From positions 186,001 to 250,000 of the forward strand of contig JAJLTO010000004.1 in the NCBI GenBank assembly GCA_030568195.1: a stretch of 64,000 bases of DNA. The letters run 5' to 3'. The translations under genes and the position numbers were made by a program. Shown piece by piece: positions 3,404 through 41,651 of this stretch; within the stretch, counting starts at the first letter, position 1; each line of letters begins with the position of its first letter. The notes beneath the pieces were generated by a model. It searched no databases. It saw nothing but the letters and a program-made list of their open reading frames with translations, and was not told the origin of the DNA. The stretch is from Dipodascopsis uninucleata var. uninucleata. Lineage: Eukaryota > Ascomycota > Lipomycetes > Lipomycetales > Lipomycetaceae.

Positions 3404-4888
3404 ATGTCTAGCCTAAAAAATAGTAGAATCTATAGCTCTCTGAGTCGTATTAGTGATCTCAAATTTGGACTGAATAGCAAGATCACACAAGGAAGTGCTC
3501 ATGCCCTGCTATTCCGACGAATGCCTCCACGACTAACCAGAGACGTCAGATTTCTTGAAATCAGAGGATCAAGAAACTATAGTAATCAATACAATGGAGT
3601 TGAAGTATCAGAAACATTCATGAAAAGTGAGTTTCACATTAAACTATACGTTATATATGCTCGGGAACAGAAAAATATTGCAATAAACATGTATATTCGT
3701 GTCAAGATCACATAGCTGAAGTGAACAATAACAACACGCTGATACTAGCAATTTATAGGATACAAAATAGTTTATGCTCTTCTTCTAAATGCTGTTTTCC
3801 TTGGAACGGGCCTCTATATTGGACCCCAGGCCATTTCGATGTTTTACGGTAGTAAGATCGATCGGGCACCTACGGAATGGTCCTTGTGGTGGAAGCGACT
3901 GTACTATATAATTCTATATTCCGAGGCACATGGAAGCCAAGTGATGAACCTCCTGGACGGCTATAAGTATCTGCTTGTCTCAATACTCAATAGTGAAGAC
4001 TGCAATGTGACCATGGATAATGTCCTGACGGTGACAGATTATGACTTTACTAACAAAAGTAGTGAGTGGATGTCTGCCCTTGCGGGAATATACGCGAAGT
4101 GCGCGGATAACCTAGCACTCCTCGGCAACGTCAAGGAGGCGGAGATGCTATACGAGCGAAGTATACAATTAAATAGTAGGATTGACACGCATTATGGTTG
4201 GGCTTGTGCTGGTATTGCTGGAATTTACGAGCAAAATGGCGACTTTAGTAAGGCAGAAAATTTCAGACTAAGGTCTATCACAGCTTTTAGCAATATCGGC
4301 ATTCTCTCGGATTACCATAACTTATCTGTCGACGAGCAAGTGAAACTCGGGAAAAATCTCGTAATAATACCTACGGACTCAAGTCCAACTAATGACATCC
4401 TGAATTCAGTAATTGATCTCGGCCTTCTGTATCTCAAGGATAAAAAGTATGAAGATGCACTGAAGGCGCTTGTGTCGGCATCTCGTATTATATCCGAGAA
4501 GCAGGAGCCGCACATAGAGCGATATCCCGAGCTTAAATTGGATCTATCCGAGGAGTGCCGCGTAAAATATTATATTTCAGAAACTCTTTGGGCACTTAAG
4601 CACCAACAAGAAGCACTTGATTGGTGTACGATGGCATACACTTCTGCAATGGAATTCATGCTTCAAGATAACACATGCGCACAATGTGCGAAAACTACCT
4701 TGAGTACTATCTCAAAGATGTATAAGGTAAGCATAAAGATAATACTAGTCATGCAATCACTAATACTAATATTTGTATCATAGTTAATGGGACAACTAGA
4801 AAAATCCGAGCAAACTTTAAGTGTTATCGAACGAATTCCTGCTGATGAGACTGAAAAAACTTCCAAAGTATTTGGATATGTGTTGTGA
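3404..4888 (+). CDS. MGR3: Mitochondrial TPR protein, Mgr3-like (i-AAA protease adaptor)
   Basis: Three exons, 3404..3626, 3759..4726, 4784..4888, give 431 aa; introns are 132 and 57 nt and phases agree. The N-terminus (MSSLKNSRIYSSLSRI) is basic and serine-rich with almost no acidic residues, like a mitochondrial presequence. A single hydrophobic segment follows at about residues 78-96, then tetratricopeptide-like helices (LAGIYAKCADNLALLGN, AGIAGIYEQNGDFSKAE, DLGLLYLKDKKYEDALKA). This layout matches yeast Mgr3, an inner-membrane partner of the Yme1 i-AAA protease facing the intermembrane space. The frame extends 5' to a GTG at 3377, so the ATG at 3404 is chosen. The Mgr3 assignment rests on architecture and weak similarity; another mitochondrial TPR protein is possible. 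Confidence 0.6.
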
Positions 4889-22566: not shown

Positions 22567-22600
22567 TTAGTAACTCTACGTAGCACTACGTAACTACGTA
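22567..22600 (-). promoter_or_regulatory. Clustered bZIP (Yap/AP-1-like) sites at the ZTA1 start
   Basis: Directly 5' of the ZTA1 ATG, on the gene strand, lie TTACTAA (22567-22573) and three TACGTA cores (22577-22582, 22587-22592, 22595-22600), two of them as TTACGTA. TTACTAA and TTACGTAA are Yap-family response elements. Their position suggests promoter or 5' UTR. Confidence 0.4.
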
Positions 22601-23643
22601 ACCCTATGTAGCTGGACAAATTGTTGAGATACTATCTCTCACACTAGAGTCTAATATAATAATGTATTATCCTATAGAAAATATCAGGAATTGACAGGAT
22701 GTTTGCTACAAGACAGATATGGAATGGAGGAGGAGGCTCGTGGAAATTCTAGGACTTACTAATTGACTTGCAAATTAGGGTTCTGTCCTTCCCAAACGTA
22801 GGAAGCTCTTCTAATTGTTAATAGATACCTTGCCAGTAAATGCTAGCTTCCTCAATAAATCTAATCTAAAGGTCGCAAAGGCAATCTATTTTCTATTGCC
22901 GTCATTAACGATTATTGAGTAGTTTAACGCTGTATTCTCCGAAACTAGAAACAGCAAAATGATAGATCTAATTCGTTGCGAAAATCGCTGTCAGGGGATC
23001 ACTATAAATATAATCTTGCAATGAATATATTTCAATCGAAACAATTTCTAAGTATTTCCAAGAAACCGTCTACTAGTACTACTATACATTGTTACTGTTT
23101 AATCTATTCTTTTCCTTTACATTATCTTAAAGTGAGCGGCAAATCGTACTCTAAATTGTTCTTTTGATACGGGGTTTTGACTTGTTGCAAATTCATGCTG
23201 GAGCCTGACAGACTTGAAACTAATTATCTCTCAGTAATATATTCTATTTAATAATATAGCCAAAAATCTAAAGAGACTGGATATATCCCTGTGTCTAGAA
23301 GTATATATCATAATTTTATGACCAAACATCAGTAAGGATTGTCTTGTTTCACTTATGATTCTGCTCAGATCTGTTCATGTCATAATAATATTATATTATT
23401 AATAATTAGCCAATAACTCAATCTTCCACAATACTACTCAACCTAAAATATGATATTAAACCTTGGGACATAAAGTGAATTGTAAAATTTCTTGGTTTCT
23501 AATGCTTATTCAATATAAAAATAATCTCTACTTCTATTCATGAAAGTCGTTATAAAAGATTCAGCACGCAATCCCAGTGATGCTGATCTATGCTAGCTCG
23601 TTATGTGACGTGATTCTGTCGGCATTCCTTTTCTTCCTTCCTT
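22601..23643. other. ZTA1 promoter / MFS-gene 3' spacer
   Basis: About 1.04 kb of AT-rich sequence between tandem minus-strand genes. No gene, RNA or repeat recognised beyond the site cluster at its left edge. Confidence 0.3.
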
Positions 23644-35345: not shown

Positions 35346-35952
35346 TTACATAGCGATTCGTTCGCTTCTAGAAAGTCGTCCATGCATGCCTCGCTCAACA
35401 GCTGGCACCCAGTCAGTAAAACTGCGGGCACCATCCACCTTCTTAACCCAACTGTATCGCTCAGCAACATTGATTTCCTTTTCAACGCTCATTATCCTAG
35501 CCTCAAGAAGAGGGAACGTTCGCACCTGAATCTCGTCCCCGCGACTCTCGTCTCGGTGGAAGGCATGTGTGGTGCATGTGCTGCAATATGTACAGTGGAC
35601 TTGGTTACCGTCCTCATTAAAGTAAGAGTAGACCTTCGGCGTGCCCTTCATGAAGCGCACAGCTGAAATCGATGTCAAGAGAATTCCACAAAAATCACCT
35701 CCACCAAGGAGCTTGCACGAACGGCAGTGGCACAAAGTGTGACTCTAAATATACAAAAAGGTCAGGATTTGTCACGTACAAACGACTTGTTACCATTAGG
35801 GAATAAGAACCCAACCACTCCACCAACTCTCACGCACCACCCAATGACCAGACAAAGCATGCAGTATTACTTACAGGCAAGGCTCTCGAGTCGCCAGTGA
35901 CAGTCCACTCAAGCTCGCCGCAGTGGCATCTGCCGTGTAACGTAGCCATCAT
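35346..35952 (-). CDS. GFA-domain (CENP-V/glutathione-dependent formaldehyde-activating) protein
   Basis: Two exons, complement(35346..35744, 35875..35952), give 158 aa; the 130-nt intron has a GTAAGT donor. Zinc ligands in order: RCHCGELEW in exon 1, LCHCRSCKLLGGGDF after splicing, and CTYCSTCTTHAFHRDES, the standard GFA Mss4-like fold pattern. Some relatives react with S-hydroxymethyl-glutathione, while many fungal paralogues have no known substrate. The ATG pair at 35950-35952 and 35947-35949 gives MMATLHGRC. It faces the large non-coding block at its 5' side. Confidence 0.86.
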
Positions 35953-36944
35953 TCAAAAATTTGGAGTTAATACTAATAGTTATTAGGATAGTTGTGAGTC
36001 AAGTTTAGTTGTGGTAATATATAGTTTTGCGAATTAGGAAAACAAATTGGAAATCAGTTTTAATACGTATAACGAACTCGTGCCAATGATAAATCGCTCG
36101 TAATTGACGTATTGATGCTAATAAAAGAAATTAAACAATAATAGTCGTATCGTTCTCTATAACGAAGGTAAAGTGCCAGTAGACGGAACGGAACTTGACC
36201 AAGTATATATAATATTAAATAGTAAGACGCTGATGGCTATTTTGCCTCCCAGGCCACTACAATAGATATAAGTTCAGATATCGCGAAAGTGACCGGAGCT
36301 TAAAGCAAAAAGCGACAACCAAGTAAAAAGGAACGACAATAGGAAAGCAAGCCAGGCAGACCAGCTTGAAAATGCCTAAAAGTGGTTATCTTTGCGACTT
36401 TTAAGTTGAGTTATAGTGTTCTGCGAAGCGGCGCACTGAAGAAAGAGTAAACTGGTAATACAACAGTAATAATAAGGCAGGTACCCTTCACAAAGAGACT
36501 GTCACTAGCACCAAAAGGCAGATAGACATACAGGGAAGCAGTAACAGACAAGCGGAAATAAAAAAGGTACCAAACTTCTCTTATATATACAAAAAAAGCC
36601 GATGCCGAAAATACGCGATCAAATAGCTAAGAGTTCCTGTTGTGGGGTCACGGTCACGTATAAAAATACCAAAAAAGTAATATTGGCGTGTATCGCTAGA
36701 TTTTTAATTTTACTCGTATACAGAGAGCGGATTTCCAATCAGTGGTGGCAAGGTATGAACCATACACTTCTGCACATGAGTCGCCGCTGCGCAGCTTCTT
36801 CGCATCCAAGTAATTCAGCTGTCTTCTCTTATTCAACAACTTCCTGTCTGGTACGCATGCGTGCTACTTTTTGTGCCTGTCAATAGGCGCGGCTATAGGC
36901 AGCCGGACTACACCGAGCTAAACTGGTATCAGGTGCAGTGATAT

Positions 36945-37038
36945 TTTTAGCTCTCGTATTGCTATAGTGGCGCGGAAGAATTGTAAGAAGCGATAATTTT
37001 AATTCCAATAAACTCTTCCGACGACGTGAGAGCTAAAA
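36945..37038. repeat. Composite hairpin with an 11-bp perfect outer stem
   Basis: TTTTAGCTCTC (36945-36955) pairs perfectly with GAGAGCTAAAA (37028-37038) and two G:U pairs extend inwards. Inside, CGGAAGA (36973-36979) pairs with TCTTCCG (37014-37020), and ATTG with CAAT closer to the loop. Confidence 0.7.
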
Positions 37039-37060
37039 TAGCGGACCGACTCACCAGCAA

Positions 37061-37087
37061 CCGCCGAAGTCTGTCGTGTCTCGGCGG
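37061..37087. repeat. Perfect 7-bp GC-rich hairpin
   Basis: CCGCCGA and TCGGCGG flank a 13-nt loop, 22 nt after the composite hairpin. Confidence 0.65.
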
Positions 37088-37298
37088 GAGGCTCACTGTA
37101 AGAAGTTGCTTTGAACACTGTTTTTGAGGGGCCATCATGTATCTCGGTGCGGCCTACGTCCGCGACGCAAGCTCTCACCAGTAGCTGCTCATAAATAATG
37201 GATTTGCGAGTATCTGCTACTGTTGGGCGATTACTTTTGTGGCTGCAGCTTATGTATCTTCTAAGTATGGTGCTGTTCGGCGCCTATGTACCGCATTT

Positions 37299-37317
37299 TA
37301 GAGCCTGTGAGGCTCTA
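37299..37317. repeat. Perfect 8-bp hairpin with GTG loop
   Basis: TAGAGCCT - GTG - AGGCTCTA, a perfect inverted repeat with a 3-nt loop. Confidence 0.75.
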
Positions 37318-37448
37318 GCAGTACGCTACTGATCTTTTCTTTTGCGTGCCCCAGTGCTAAGTGCTTTTGACGCGAATCTGAGTGCAGTCCAGTGATATTA
37401 CCGCGTGTGCGCGCAGGCGCTATGCGCTACGTAGAAGTAGCAATTGAG

Positions 37449-37463
37449 CCTCGCGTGGCGAGG
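37449..37463. repeat. Perfect 6-bp hairpin with GTG loop
   Basis: CCTCGC - GTG - GCGAGG, followed by TTTTG. The loop is the same three bases as the hairpin 130 nt upstream. Confidence 0.7.
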
Positions 37464-38422
37464 TTTTGCTTATCGGCAACAGAGTACAGTATGCTGTGTC
37501 TGTGCAAGTATTGTGTGATTAGTAATGCCGGAGGGAATCTCAGAAGAATCTTGGAGCAGATATTCGAGTATAGTATAGATATGTCACAGTCTGGAAGAAT
37601 TGCTATACATCTCCAGCGATATGTATACGAGCTGTGAGCCCTATATATGCAGCGTGCTGGTACTTCCGTTGCTACTACTTAGGTAACGGTCATACTATGT
37701 GTCTGAGCTATACTGGGTGCGTGTTCGACGTGTATCTATAGAGAAAGGAACGAAGAAACAGCTGGCGCGAATGTGATACTGTTGCCGATAACTACACTGT
37801 CTGTCCGTCTACATATATCTACATGTCTACAATATAGGGACCAGAGACAGAGCGCCAGGCGTACTGTGCACGCAGCTCGCTCTTGAATATTACCGCTACC
37901 CTAGTGAGGGCGTTTGTGCGTAGCACAGCGCTGTACTATAACTATCTATGCTTGCATCACTGCATTCACCTCTATCACGCTGTATGTCTACAGATTATTG
38001 CACAGAACCATACACAGCTATATGTAAAGGTCCTATACACGTATACGCGTACACACGCATATACTGTCCCCGCACGCAGGCACTGCAGCTAGACGTGGGG
38101 CAGCCGATATGGTACGTGCATGTAGATGCTTGTGCGGACGGTATGTCCTCAGTTCCTAGCAGTCACAGATAACTACCGACCCCAGGGCCAGTCTGCGGTA
38201 GCAGGAGAAAAGGTCCACGCTGTCTACACTACGGCGATTCTTCTGTCGGAGCCAGCCTATGGCAACCTTGCTGATAATCTGCACGCGGTAAGGGTACCAC
38301 GTAGTTTGCCAGGACATAGTTACGGTCAGCTAGAGTCAGCTTATACAGACAATGGCGCTCTGCCCTGCAAGATAAAAATGCTGTGCTGTGCTGAGCAACG
38401 CTGCATCTAGCACCGTAGGAGT

Positions 38423-38445
38423 GCTCGCTAGCTGGCTAGCAGAGC
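38423..38445. repeat. 9-bp bulged hairpin
   Basis: GCTC/GAGC continued by GCTAG/CTAGC with one bulged A, around a 4-nt loop. Confidence 0.6.
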
Positions 38446-38910
38446 CACATGCAAGTAGGAGCGACTGTGTATTAGGGTGAGCACTAACGCAGGTCCTAAG
38501 TAGCTCTTTCGGCAGTAGTTGCTCTCCTTACGCCAGAGAGCCGAGTCTGCAGCGGAATGACCAGTCTCTCCTTACAGGCATAACGGAGCTACATGATTCT
38601 TTCAGCCAGCACCCCGCAGCATGCGCAGTCCGCCACCAGCTTTCGTCCCTCAGGACGTAACCGGCACCGCGAGAGACCATCGACGCGGCCTAAGGGTATT
38701 GTGCCACTGCTCACGCCGCCAATGGACGCGGCCCTACTCCGATCAAGTGTTCCAAAAGCGACGACGTATTATAGTCGCATCTAGTAATCGCGCACAATTT
38801 AGGACAAGTTCGTCCAGTTCAGGAAGTCTGTAGATTCGGCGTTCTTCGGTTGCACTGCCCGTCTACATCTTCTGTACATGGATGTATCTAGTACTTGCGC
38901 ATATAGCAGT

Positions 38911-38930
38911 TATATATATATATATATACC
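38911..38930. repeat. TA dinucleotide microsatellite
   Basis: About ten TA units in a row within the non-coding block. Confidence 0.8.
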
Positions 38931-40704
38931 CACGCAGCACAAAGCAGTCGCAGCAACAATAATAGCACTGGCCATATAACTACATACCAGCATTCTCCTC
39001 TGTACATATCTCCTGTGGCTGACTGCAAGTGTTCTCGTGTGGTGCCGTTTTACGTAAATACTGGATATTACGATATTGGCTTAAACGACACTATGCCCAA
39101 GAACGGCTATGCTAAAACAAGCAACAGATCTACCAGTTCCAAAAAAAAAGTAGTCTAAACACAGCAATGGCACTCTGAATATGGCAACACAGACACCCAA
39201 AAAGTTTTCCTATATCTGGTACTGAAAGCAGTTCAATTAAATATAAAGTGGATCTGAAATAGAACACAACAAAAGATGTTCTGGTCAACCTTGCTACTGT
39301 AGTATCGTCCTGTAAAAGCTCCGCAGCGCCGTAGATAATACAGAGACGAAAACCCTAATGACACTTGCATGCTTGCAGAAAAACCGCCTGTGCTACCTTT
39401 AGGGCACAAAATATGCAGTAAATATTATATGCAGTAGTATGCATATAATATGTACTATACCCAGAAAAGCAAGAGCGGCTTAAAACAGCAACCAGGCAGT
39501 CTAAGCCTAGTCTTTTTTAACCCTTTTCTGCTGTGCAAAAAGCCCTTGCTGTTGGATTTTTGTCAATCTTAAGCTCTTTTATTTTCCCGGTCATTTTTTA
39601 CTACTAAGAGCAAACTTATTGTAACTACTGTTATTATTATATACTTATACTAGCACTAACACAGGCATTTTATTTTTTTATACTCTCAATTTGCTTTCCC
39701 TAACTCTTCCCCTTGGTTACAGATTTATTCTGGCTTTTCAGTCCGTCCTGTCAGTTCTGCTGTTGTCGATTCTTTCCTGTTCGCCCATTTATCTTTCCTT
39801 CGCGCTTTCGTTCTTTTGGTCCTCATCAGATCGACCAATTCTACGCTAATCCGCTTCATTTTCTTTGGTCCAGACCAAGCGTCCACCGCCACTAGCGCTG
39901 CACTCGCCGGCTCACAATCGGCATCCCAAGGAGCTCTGTTTCTTAACTGAGCTATCACAATTTCTTGTTCAAGGATCACACGTCTTCTGCAAAGGTTGAA
40001 CAATCATAGATAGGTATGCTGCATAGAATTAGTTCCACGTAATTGTTGGCGCATTGTTACCTAAGAAGGGTGCATAAGAGACTATGACTGCACAACGGTG
40101 CGCTGGGCCCGACAGCCCTGCACAGATAATGTTTGGCTGCCAGATTATTGTACTGCTGAAATAATTTTTTTATTTTCTCATGACATGGATCTTGTGGCTC
40201 CTACAAACCGGACTACTCCTTCCACTGTGTGTGAGGCAAAGTTGTTCGCGGCACACCTGGAATTAGCGGATGACGTTCGCTAGCACAAGTGCTGGGGCGT
40301 CTGAGGGCGCAGCATCCGGATGATGCTGTGCAGTGATGACATGACTCGCTGCCAGCCAATATCTTTAAATAGAAGATGTTGAATCCGCAATATCCTTATA
40401 ACTGGCTCTTATTTCGTCTCTTCATGCTTATTTAATCTTCTGATGTAATGATCGGGTGGCATTTATGTGTTCGTTTATACTAATATTAATTAAAATCGCT
40501 GTGGTTTAGGTCGTCACTTCAGCTGCTGAGATATATTTTTACATTGCATTATCTAATTTCTGGGTCCTATTACCCGTTGTCGCGCGGACTTGTGTACATA
40601 TCAAAGGGGGAAAGGACACTGTTCATATTTTTATCAAAAGATCAGCTCTTGCTATAAACCACGTATTTTATTTATTCATTATTGAAAATATATTCTAGAT
40701 AATA

Positions 40705-41651
40705 ATGGCATACAACTCACAGTATGGCGCCAACGGGTGAGTATTTTCTCGTCTGCATGCTGCATTTAATCGTATGGGGATCGACGACTAACTTCCATCG
40801 TCTTTAGCGGAAATCCGTATGGCCAGCAGGAGTATGAAATGCACAACTACAATAACAACAACAACAATGGCTATAGTCAAGATGACATGGGTGCTTTCTT
40901 CGCTGAGATCGATGATATCAAGAACGCCATTGCCCAGTTCGATGACAACATTGCCAGAATAGAATCTCTTCACAATCGATCTTTAAACGAAATCGAGGAT
41001 GAGTGGAATCAAAAGCAGATCGACGCTCTCACTGCTCGCACTTCTCAGATTTCCGGTTCTCTCAAGTCCAAGATCAAGACCCTGGAGGCACGAAGTCAGA
41101 CTGATAGTACCAAGAAGCTTCAGGTAGAGGCTGTAAAGAAGACATTCATGGACTCTATCCAAAACTACCAATCCGTTGAAGCCACATACGCTAGAAAGTA
41201 CAGACAGCGTGCTGAGAGACAGTACAGAATTGTTAAGCCAGACGCAACTGATGAGGAAGTGCGTGCTGTTATTGAAGATGACTCTGGAAGTCAGATCTTT
41301 TCTCAGGCTCTGCTCAACTCTAACAGACGCGGAGAGGCCCGTACCGCTCTTACCGAGGTCCAGAATAGACACAAAGACATCCAAAAGATGGAGCGAACTC
41401 TTGGTGAATTGGTTCAGCTTTTCAAGGACATGGAGGAGCTTGTTGAGATCCAGGGCAACGATGTTGTTGCTGTAGATAATACTACCAAGCGTGTCGAACA
41501 GGAGGTCTACAAGGGTGTTGACGAGACTCGCGTTGCTGTCAAGCATGCTCGTGCTGCCCGAAGAAAGAAATGGATCTGCTTGGGTATTGTTGTCCTCATT
41601 TGTATTATCTTAGCTCTTGTTCTTGGTCTTGTATTCGGTCTCAGACACTAA
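40705..41651 (+). CDS. SSO1: Plasma-membrane t-SNARE (syntaxin), Sso1/2 type
   Basis: Exons 40705..40736 and 40808..41651 give 291 aa; the 71-nt intron sits 32 nt after the ATG, with a CGACTAAC branch. The N-terminus is N/Q/G-rich. The Habc bundle begins at MGAFFAEIDDIKNAIAQF. The Qa-SNARE helix (EVQNRHKDIQKMERTL onwards) has its zero-layer Gln in LVEIQGND. A basic ARRKKW stop leads to the C-terminal anchor (ICLGIVVLICIILALVLGL). It pairs with Sec9 and Snc to fuse secretory vesicles at the plasma membrane. Confidence 0.94.

What the first reader, a model, noticed from the sequence alone, without database searches (positions are those of the whole stretch)
35953..40704. GC-raised, hairpin-rich 4.7-kb non-coding block between GFA and SSO1
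Every other intergenic gap in the window is at most 1.6 kb and AT-rich. This one is about 4.7 kb and locally about 57% GC (34/60 and 35/60 in two hand-counted samples, against 19/60 downstream of SSO1). It carries no supported ORF but several perfect hairpins. In this setting that pattern fits a long structured non-coding RNA, a large regulatory region or acquired DNA. No known ncRNA signature (U1-U6, SRP, RNase P/MRP, 5S) was recognised.
Basis: partly seen in the sequence, partly recalled or inferred. Interest (0 to 1): 0.7.

Follow-up and report, generated by a model that had tools for sequence, protein, structure and literature searches.

The report
Long GC-raised gap beside SSO1
A yeast chromosome has an unusually long gene-free stretch between two genes, with a middle richer in G and C than its surroundings; a stretch upstream of another gene in the same genome has much the same GC profile, so it is most likely an ordinary long regulatory spacer rather than a new RNA gene.

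Summary
The 4,752-base gap between a GFA-family gene (start 35952, minus) and SSO1 (start 40705, plus) is real and non-coding: no coding periodicity, no open stretch longer than shuffles give, no Pfam match. The GC claim is overstated: the gap averages 44.5% (window 40.6%, other intergenic DNA 35.2%); only about 37.15-38.96 kb is raised, to 50%, peaking near 58%. That core is poor in A/T runs, TA-enriched, and no second copy was found in its genome. "Structured RNA" is not supported: the core folds no better than shuffles. One isolated stable element (39.40-39.56 kb, minus) stands out, but comparable outliers occur in 2 of 3 other long gaps scanned. Rfam gave one single-copy, probably chance match; no telomerase template is present. 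Of three other long upstream gaps examined (about 8-10 kb, at WOPR and APSES regulator genes), the APSES one has an equally GC-raised non-coding block (0.495 over 3.7 kb); the other two are lower. Best reading: an ordinary long divergent intergenic, probably cis-regulatory, spacer with AT-rich edges and a GC-raised interior. Left unexplained: AA/TT depletion and TA excess beyond all comparators, and GC far above four-fold synonymous sites (31%).

The parts
35953..40704 (.). whole divergent gap between the GFA-family gene (-) and SSO1 (+), 4,752 bases, GC 0.445
35953..36600 (.). AT-rich flank on the GFA side (GC 0.366; 21.6 A4+/T4+ runs per kb); promoter role inferred
37151..38960 (.). GC-raised core (GC 0.502), poor in A/T runs (5.0 A4+/T4+ runs per kb), depleted in AA/TT and CC/GG, enriched in TA; no general RNA structure, no second copy found
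38911..38930 (.). (TA)n run at the right edge of the core; gives the only other match (to itself, reversed) in the own-genome search
38961..39600 (.). flank rich in A/T runs (29.7 A4+/T4+ runs per kb, GC 0.397)
39401..39560 (-). isolated thermodynamically stable element; the 201-base stretch 39380-39580 has z -4.5 (0 of 200 shuffles as stable), best 150-base window z -6.1; unknown role
39422..39451 (.). perfect 12-bp inverted repeat with 6-base loop, the only place of that pattern in the genome
39601..40704 (.). SSO1-side flank (GC 0.416), composition close to ordinary intergenic DNA; promoter role inferred

Best explanation
The block is an ordinary, though unusually long, divergent intergenic region. 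AT-rich flanks lie next to GFA and SSO1; between them lies about 2 kb of single-copy DNA that is GC-raised and poor in A/T runs. Shown: it is non-coding, without a detected second copy, not generally structured as RNA, and its GC profile is matched by another long upstream gap of the same genome. Inferred: the flanks are the two promoters, and the interior is a nucleosome-dense spacer and distal cis-regulatory DNA, possibly partly transcribed as a long 5' leader, that keeps the two divergent promoters apart and carries scattered binding sites. On this view it acts through chromatin and regulator binding, not through a structured RNA.
For: Non-coding by ORF length, periodicity and Pfam. Folding at shuffle level apart from one element. 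Three other long gaps exist in this genome upstream of WOPR and APSES genes, about 9.8, 8.3 and 8.1 kb. The APSES gap has a 3.7-kb interior block at GC 0.495, highest 2-kb GC 0.511 against 0.5075 here, no Pfam match, and the same CC-low, GC-high, GA-low dinucleotide steps. In all four gaps GC is lower and A/T runs denser near a gene start than in the interior. Large upstream intergenic regions are described for targets of the C. albicans switch regulators (passage of PMC7793994).
Against: SSO1 and GFA are not developmental regulators, the gene type of the three comparators. The two WOPR gaps reach only 0.44 and 0.417 GC over 2 kb. The core's AA/TT depletion and TA excess are matched by none of the comparators. 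Of 13 recalled motifs only CACAAA is above its shuffles in the gap (6 against 2.3 +/- 1.3), and E-boxes are fewer (12 against 21.1 +/- 5.0). The three comparators were chosen by gene family, not at random. No expression or chromatin data.
Confidence: 0.52

Rival explanations
1. An unannotated non-coding RNA gene lies in the gap: either a long, mostly unstructured transcript over the core, or a short structured RNA at 39.40-39.56 kb on the minus strand.
For: Stable multi-hairpin element at 39.40-39.56 kb (z -4.5 to -6.1). A box C/D-like arrangement at 40333-40443 (+) is expected 0.027 times in shuffles of the gap.
Against: Core folding at shuffle level. No Rfam family beyond one single-copy CRISPR-repeat match and a sub-threshold snoRNA hit. 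Stability outliers also in 2 of 3 other long gaps. The whole window holds 4 C/D-like arrangements, 2 inside long ORFs, against 1.3 +/- 1.4 in shuffles.
Confidence: 0.15
2. The gap is a regional centromere or other special chromatin domain with a GC-raised core, set by composition rather than by a motif or repeat.
For: One long gene-free, single-copy block with a sharp compositional core and AT-rich flanks. Budding-yeast centromeres vary widely in structure (abstract of PMC12711049).
Against: Putative centromeres of Blastobotrys adeninivorans, a possible relative (kinship recalled, not tested), are GC troughs of 31-33% against 48% (passage of PMC4022394). The GC profile recurs upstream of an APSES gene. 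No Ty5-like cluster or large inverted repeat in the gap.
Confidence: 0.1
3. GC-biased gene conversion at a recombination hotspot has raised GC in the interior of this long gap, and in the APSES gap.
For: GC 0.50 in non-coding DNA against 0.311 at 4,076 four-fold sites (16 open frames) and 0.344 in 11 other window gaps.
Against: Does not by itself explain depletion of both AA/TT and CC/GG with TA excess. No recombination data.
Confidence: 0.1
4. The core is acquired or mobile DNA that has decayed beyond recognition.
For: Dinucleotide distance 0.215 over 1.5 kb, above all but one (telomere-bearing) of 130 sampled windows. A 31-base AT-rich direct repeat, 77% identical, lies near both ends of the gap (35966-35996, 40473-40503, whose output warns that such pairs are often chance in two-copy families).
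Against: No match in phages or plasmids, no second genomic copy, no protein remnant, no inverted repeats at the core edges. TA excess is unusual for any coding source (recalled, not tested).
Confidence: 0.07

Closest known systems
Large upstream intergenic regions of yeast regulator networks (C. albicans switch-regulator targets; passage of PMC7793994)
   Same: Several kb of non-coding DNA next to a gene start; in this genome WOPR and APSES genes have such gaps, one with the same GC rise.
   Different: The neighbours here are a t-SNARE gene and a GFA-family enzyme gene; tested motifs are not convincingly enriched; AA/TT depletion and TA excess are stronger.
Regional yeast centromeres
   Same: Long gene-free single-copy block with its own composition.
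   Different: GC raised rather than a trough as predicted in B. adeninivorans (passage of PMC4022394); no binding data; not shown to be one per chromosome.
Yeast telomerase RNA
   Same: A long ncRNA gene could hide in a gap of this size.
   Different: Telomeric repeat is (TTACATAGGG)n; no exact stretch of 9 nt or more of it lies in the gap.

Membership tests
Long upstream/divergent intergenic (cis-regulatory) region | Several kb without coding capacity between gene starts | tested here: met
Long upstream/divergent intergenic (cis-regulatory) region | Composition like other long gaps of the same genome | tested here: inconclusive
   GC profile matched by 1 of 3 long gaps, weaker in 2; AA/TT depletion and TA excess matched by none
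Long upstream/divergent intergenic (cis-regulatory) region | Clustered regulator binding sites or effect on neighbouring genes | tested here: inconclusive
   13 recalled motifs, only CACAAA above shuffles, single test of many; effect on expression not testable
Long structured non-coding RNA | Folding better than shuffled sequence over the body | tested here: not met
   core mean z +0.26, gap mean -0.09; one element at 39.40-39.56 kb is the exception
Long structured non-coding RNA | Covariation in related sequences | not testable with these tools
   the genome has no relatives here
Telomerase RNA | Template complementary to the telomeric repeat | tested here: not met
   no match of 9 nt or more in the gap on either strand
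Regional centromere | CENP-A occupancy or centromere clustering in Hi-C | not testable with these tools
   no such data
Regional centromere | One such block per chromosome | not tested
Acquired or mobile DNA | Terminal repeats, protein remnants or homologous DNA elsewhere | tested here: not met

The most novel reading that the evidence does not exclude
The core is a specialised chromatin domain: DNA kept free of poly(A/T) runs, TA-rich and near-equal in all four bases. It could be a GC-raised regional centromere or a nucleosome-locked boundary, specified by composition rather than by motif or repeat; long yeast gaps such as the APSES one may come under a related force that raises GC well above the synonymous-site level.
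Probability: 0.1. Interest if true: 0.6.

Novelty: new member of a known kind. Interest (0 to 1): 0.3.

Why it matters
If the best reading is right, the finding is fairly ordinary: long gaps in this yeast can carry GC-raised interiors, and such blocks should not be read as RNA genes from GC alone. What would matter is the force behind it: non-coding DNA at 50% GC in a genome with 31% GC at four-fold sites (16 open frames of this window) calls for selection, biased gene conversion or a chromatin role, and comparing long gaps across sister species would tell these apart.

Tried and rejected
Telomerase RNA: telomeric repeat derived from contig ends, no template in the gap. Hidden or decayed protein gene: six-frame Pfam, 3-periodicity, ORF length (one search gave two sub-threshold matches, E 0.05 and 0.09, taken as chance). 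Short prenylated pheromone-like ORFs: the pattern scan printed none. Tandem or degenerate satellite: self-similarity as in 8 shuffles; no array in the gap. 10-bp periodicity of nucleosome type: none convincing, smallest shuffle fraction 0.055 among 20 tests. CRISPR-DR56 match at 39716-39752: one copy, no array, taken as chance. Bacterial promoter/terminator scan: 8 against 8.9 and 6 against 3.8 in shuffles, not meaningful in a yeast. Finding other core-like regions by short IUPAC patterns: designed, judged too weak, search not run. Species: not identified; text searches for the telomeric repeat listed only papers with unrelated titles (5 of 5; 30 of 98 shown).

Limits. The three comparator gaps were chosen by gene family (3 of the 5 WOPR and KilA-N/APSES matches), not at random. 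The five homeodomain loci were only looked at for GC in 500-base bins. The composition samples are 40 contig ends and 15 internal 4-kb stretches, coding and non-coding mixed; contigs 21-25 were not sampled.

Full report
Setting. The window is G000:C4:186001-250000, part of a 16.2-Mb assembly in 25 contigs. Gene content (SSO1; a GFA-family protein and an Fyv6-type protein) points to a budding yeast (inference); the species is not identified. Two tRNA genes lie in the window.

Observation. The GFA-family gene starts at 35952 (-) and SSO1 at 40705 (+), read from the sequence, which leaves 4,752 bases. With open stretches of 100 codons or more masked, the longest other gap of the window is 1,851 bases. 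The gap shows no coding signal: its longest open stretch, 113 codons, is what shuffles give (mean 112), the 3-base periodicity is flat (SSO1 reaches 10.5), and six-frame Pfam scans are empty at E 0.5.

GC. The gap averages 0.445 against 0.406 for the window and 0.352 for 15,670 bases of other intergenic DNA of the window. The rise is confined to an interior core of about 37.15-38.96 kb with GC 0.502; 35953-36600 and 38961-39600 are at 0.366 and 0.397. The core has nearly equal base counts, AA and TT at 0.67 and 0.70 of expectation, CC and GG at 0.71 and 0.65, TA at 1.34 and GC at 1.41. Over 1.5 kb its dinucleotide distance from the window average is 0.215; among 130 windows from 40 contig ends and 15 internal samples one, bearing telomeric repeats, is higher, and none has AA below 0.85 or TA above 1.18. 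Against intergenic DNA only, 3 of the 8 pieces of about 600 bases that make up the gap exceed the largest of 42 control windows. The core has 5.0 A4+/T4+ runs per kb against 17.5 in 11 other window gaps. No internal tandem repeat and no convincing 10-bp periodicity was found.

Uniqueness. Searches of the own genome with the whole gap (E up to 0.001) and with the core (E up to 10) returned the gap itself and an 18-base self match of the (TA)n run; the tool scores only its best candidates, so weak relatives could be missed. Phage and plasmid collections gave nothing.

RNA. Folding z-scores over 150-base windows average -0.09 in the gap (124 windows) and +0.26 in the core (48), against 0.01 in 142 control windows; 8% of gap windows and 3% of control windows fall below -2. 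One element at 39.40-39.56 kb on the minus strand is much more stable than shuffles (z -6.1 for the best window; -4.5 over 201 bases) and includes a perfect 12-bp inverted repeat found nowhere else in the genome. In three other long gaps 3 of 650 windows, at 2 sites, fall below z -4, two of them near -6, so such an element is not special to this gap. Rfam finds only a single-copy CRISPR-repeat match and a sub-threshold hit. The telomeric repeat read from 11 of 40 contig ends is (TTACATAGGG)n; no exact stretch of 9 nt or more of it lies in the gap, which excludes telomerase RNA there.

Comparators. WOPR domains lie on C6 and C7 and KilA-N/APSES-type domains on C7, C8 and C1. I fetched the DNA upstream of three of these five and extended two. 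All three gaps are long and without coding signal: about 9.8, 8.3 and 8.1 kb. The APSES gap has a 3.7-kb interior block at 0.495, with a highest 2-kb GC of 0.511 against 0.5075 at the focus, no Pfam match, and the same CC-low, GC-high, GA-low steps. The two WOPR gaps reach only 0.44 and 0.417 over 2 kb. None matches the AA/TT depletion or TA excess of the focus core; the nearest is the far end of one WOPR gap (AA 0.80, TA 1.22). The four gaps share no convincing sequence similarity (best E 0.014 over 21 bases between the two WOPR gaps; 0.067 over 39 bases between the focus and one of them).

Interpretation. I therefore file the block as a long divergent intergenic, probably cis-regulatory, region with a GC-raised interior. 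The regulatory role is inferred: of 13 recalled regulator motifs only CACAAA exceeds its shuffles (6 against 2.3 +/- 1.3) and E-boxes are fewer than expected (12 against 21.1 +/- 5.0), and SSO1 and GFA are not the gene type for which large upstream regions are described (passage of PMC7793994). Blastobotrys adeninivorans centromeres are predicted as GC troughs (passage of PMC4022394), which speaks against a centromere without excluding it; budding-yeast centromeres vary widely in structure (abstract of PMC12711049).

Unexplained. GC 0.50 lies far above the 0.311 at 4,076 four-fold sites of 16 open frames of the window, and homodinucleotides are depleted below chance. Drift under the genome's ordinary mutation pattern would not be expected to give this (inference). 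Selection, biased gene conversion or a chromatin role remain open, and no related genomes were available to tell them apart.

Noticed in passing
22598-22610 (+): A 13-nt exact match to the telomeric repeat (GTAACCCTATGTA), about 35 bases upstream of the apparent start (read by eye) of a quinone-oxidoreductase-like gene on the minus strand; probably a telobox-like promoter site rather than a telomerase template (no Rfam match over its cut-off there).
   Followed up: partly
L097 + L100 (C6:497500-516500), L098 (C7:571000-579900), L099 + L101 (C7:487200-504000): Non-coding gaps of about 8-10 kb upstream of WOPR and APSES regulator genes; the APSES gap has a 3.7-kb block at GC 0.495, and the gap upstream of the second WOPR gene holds more TTAAMKTT (10 against 4.3 +/- 2.1) than shuffles.
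   Followed up: partly
L099:3951-4100 (-) and L098:8151-8300 (-): Isolated very stable RNA-fold elements (z about -6) inside other long gaps, with no shared sequence with the one at 39.4 kb.
   Followed up: partly
contig ends of G000 (L008, L010, L012, L017, L019, L026, L029, L031, L033, L035, L036): 10-nt telomeric repeat (TTACATAGGG)n at 11 of the 40 contig ends examined.
   Followed up: partly
40333-40443 (+): Box C/D snoRNA-like arrangement (GTGATGA ... CTGA with a 4-bp terminal stem), expected 0.027 times in shuffles of the gap, but 4 such arrangements occur in the window against 1.3 +/- 1.4 in shuffles; not an Rfam match.
   Followed up: partly
39716-39752 (-): Single match to the Rfam CRISPR-DR56 repeat model just over its cut-off (36.4 against 35 bits) in a yeast; no array, probably chance.
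   Followed up: partly
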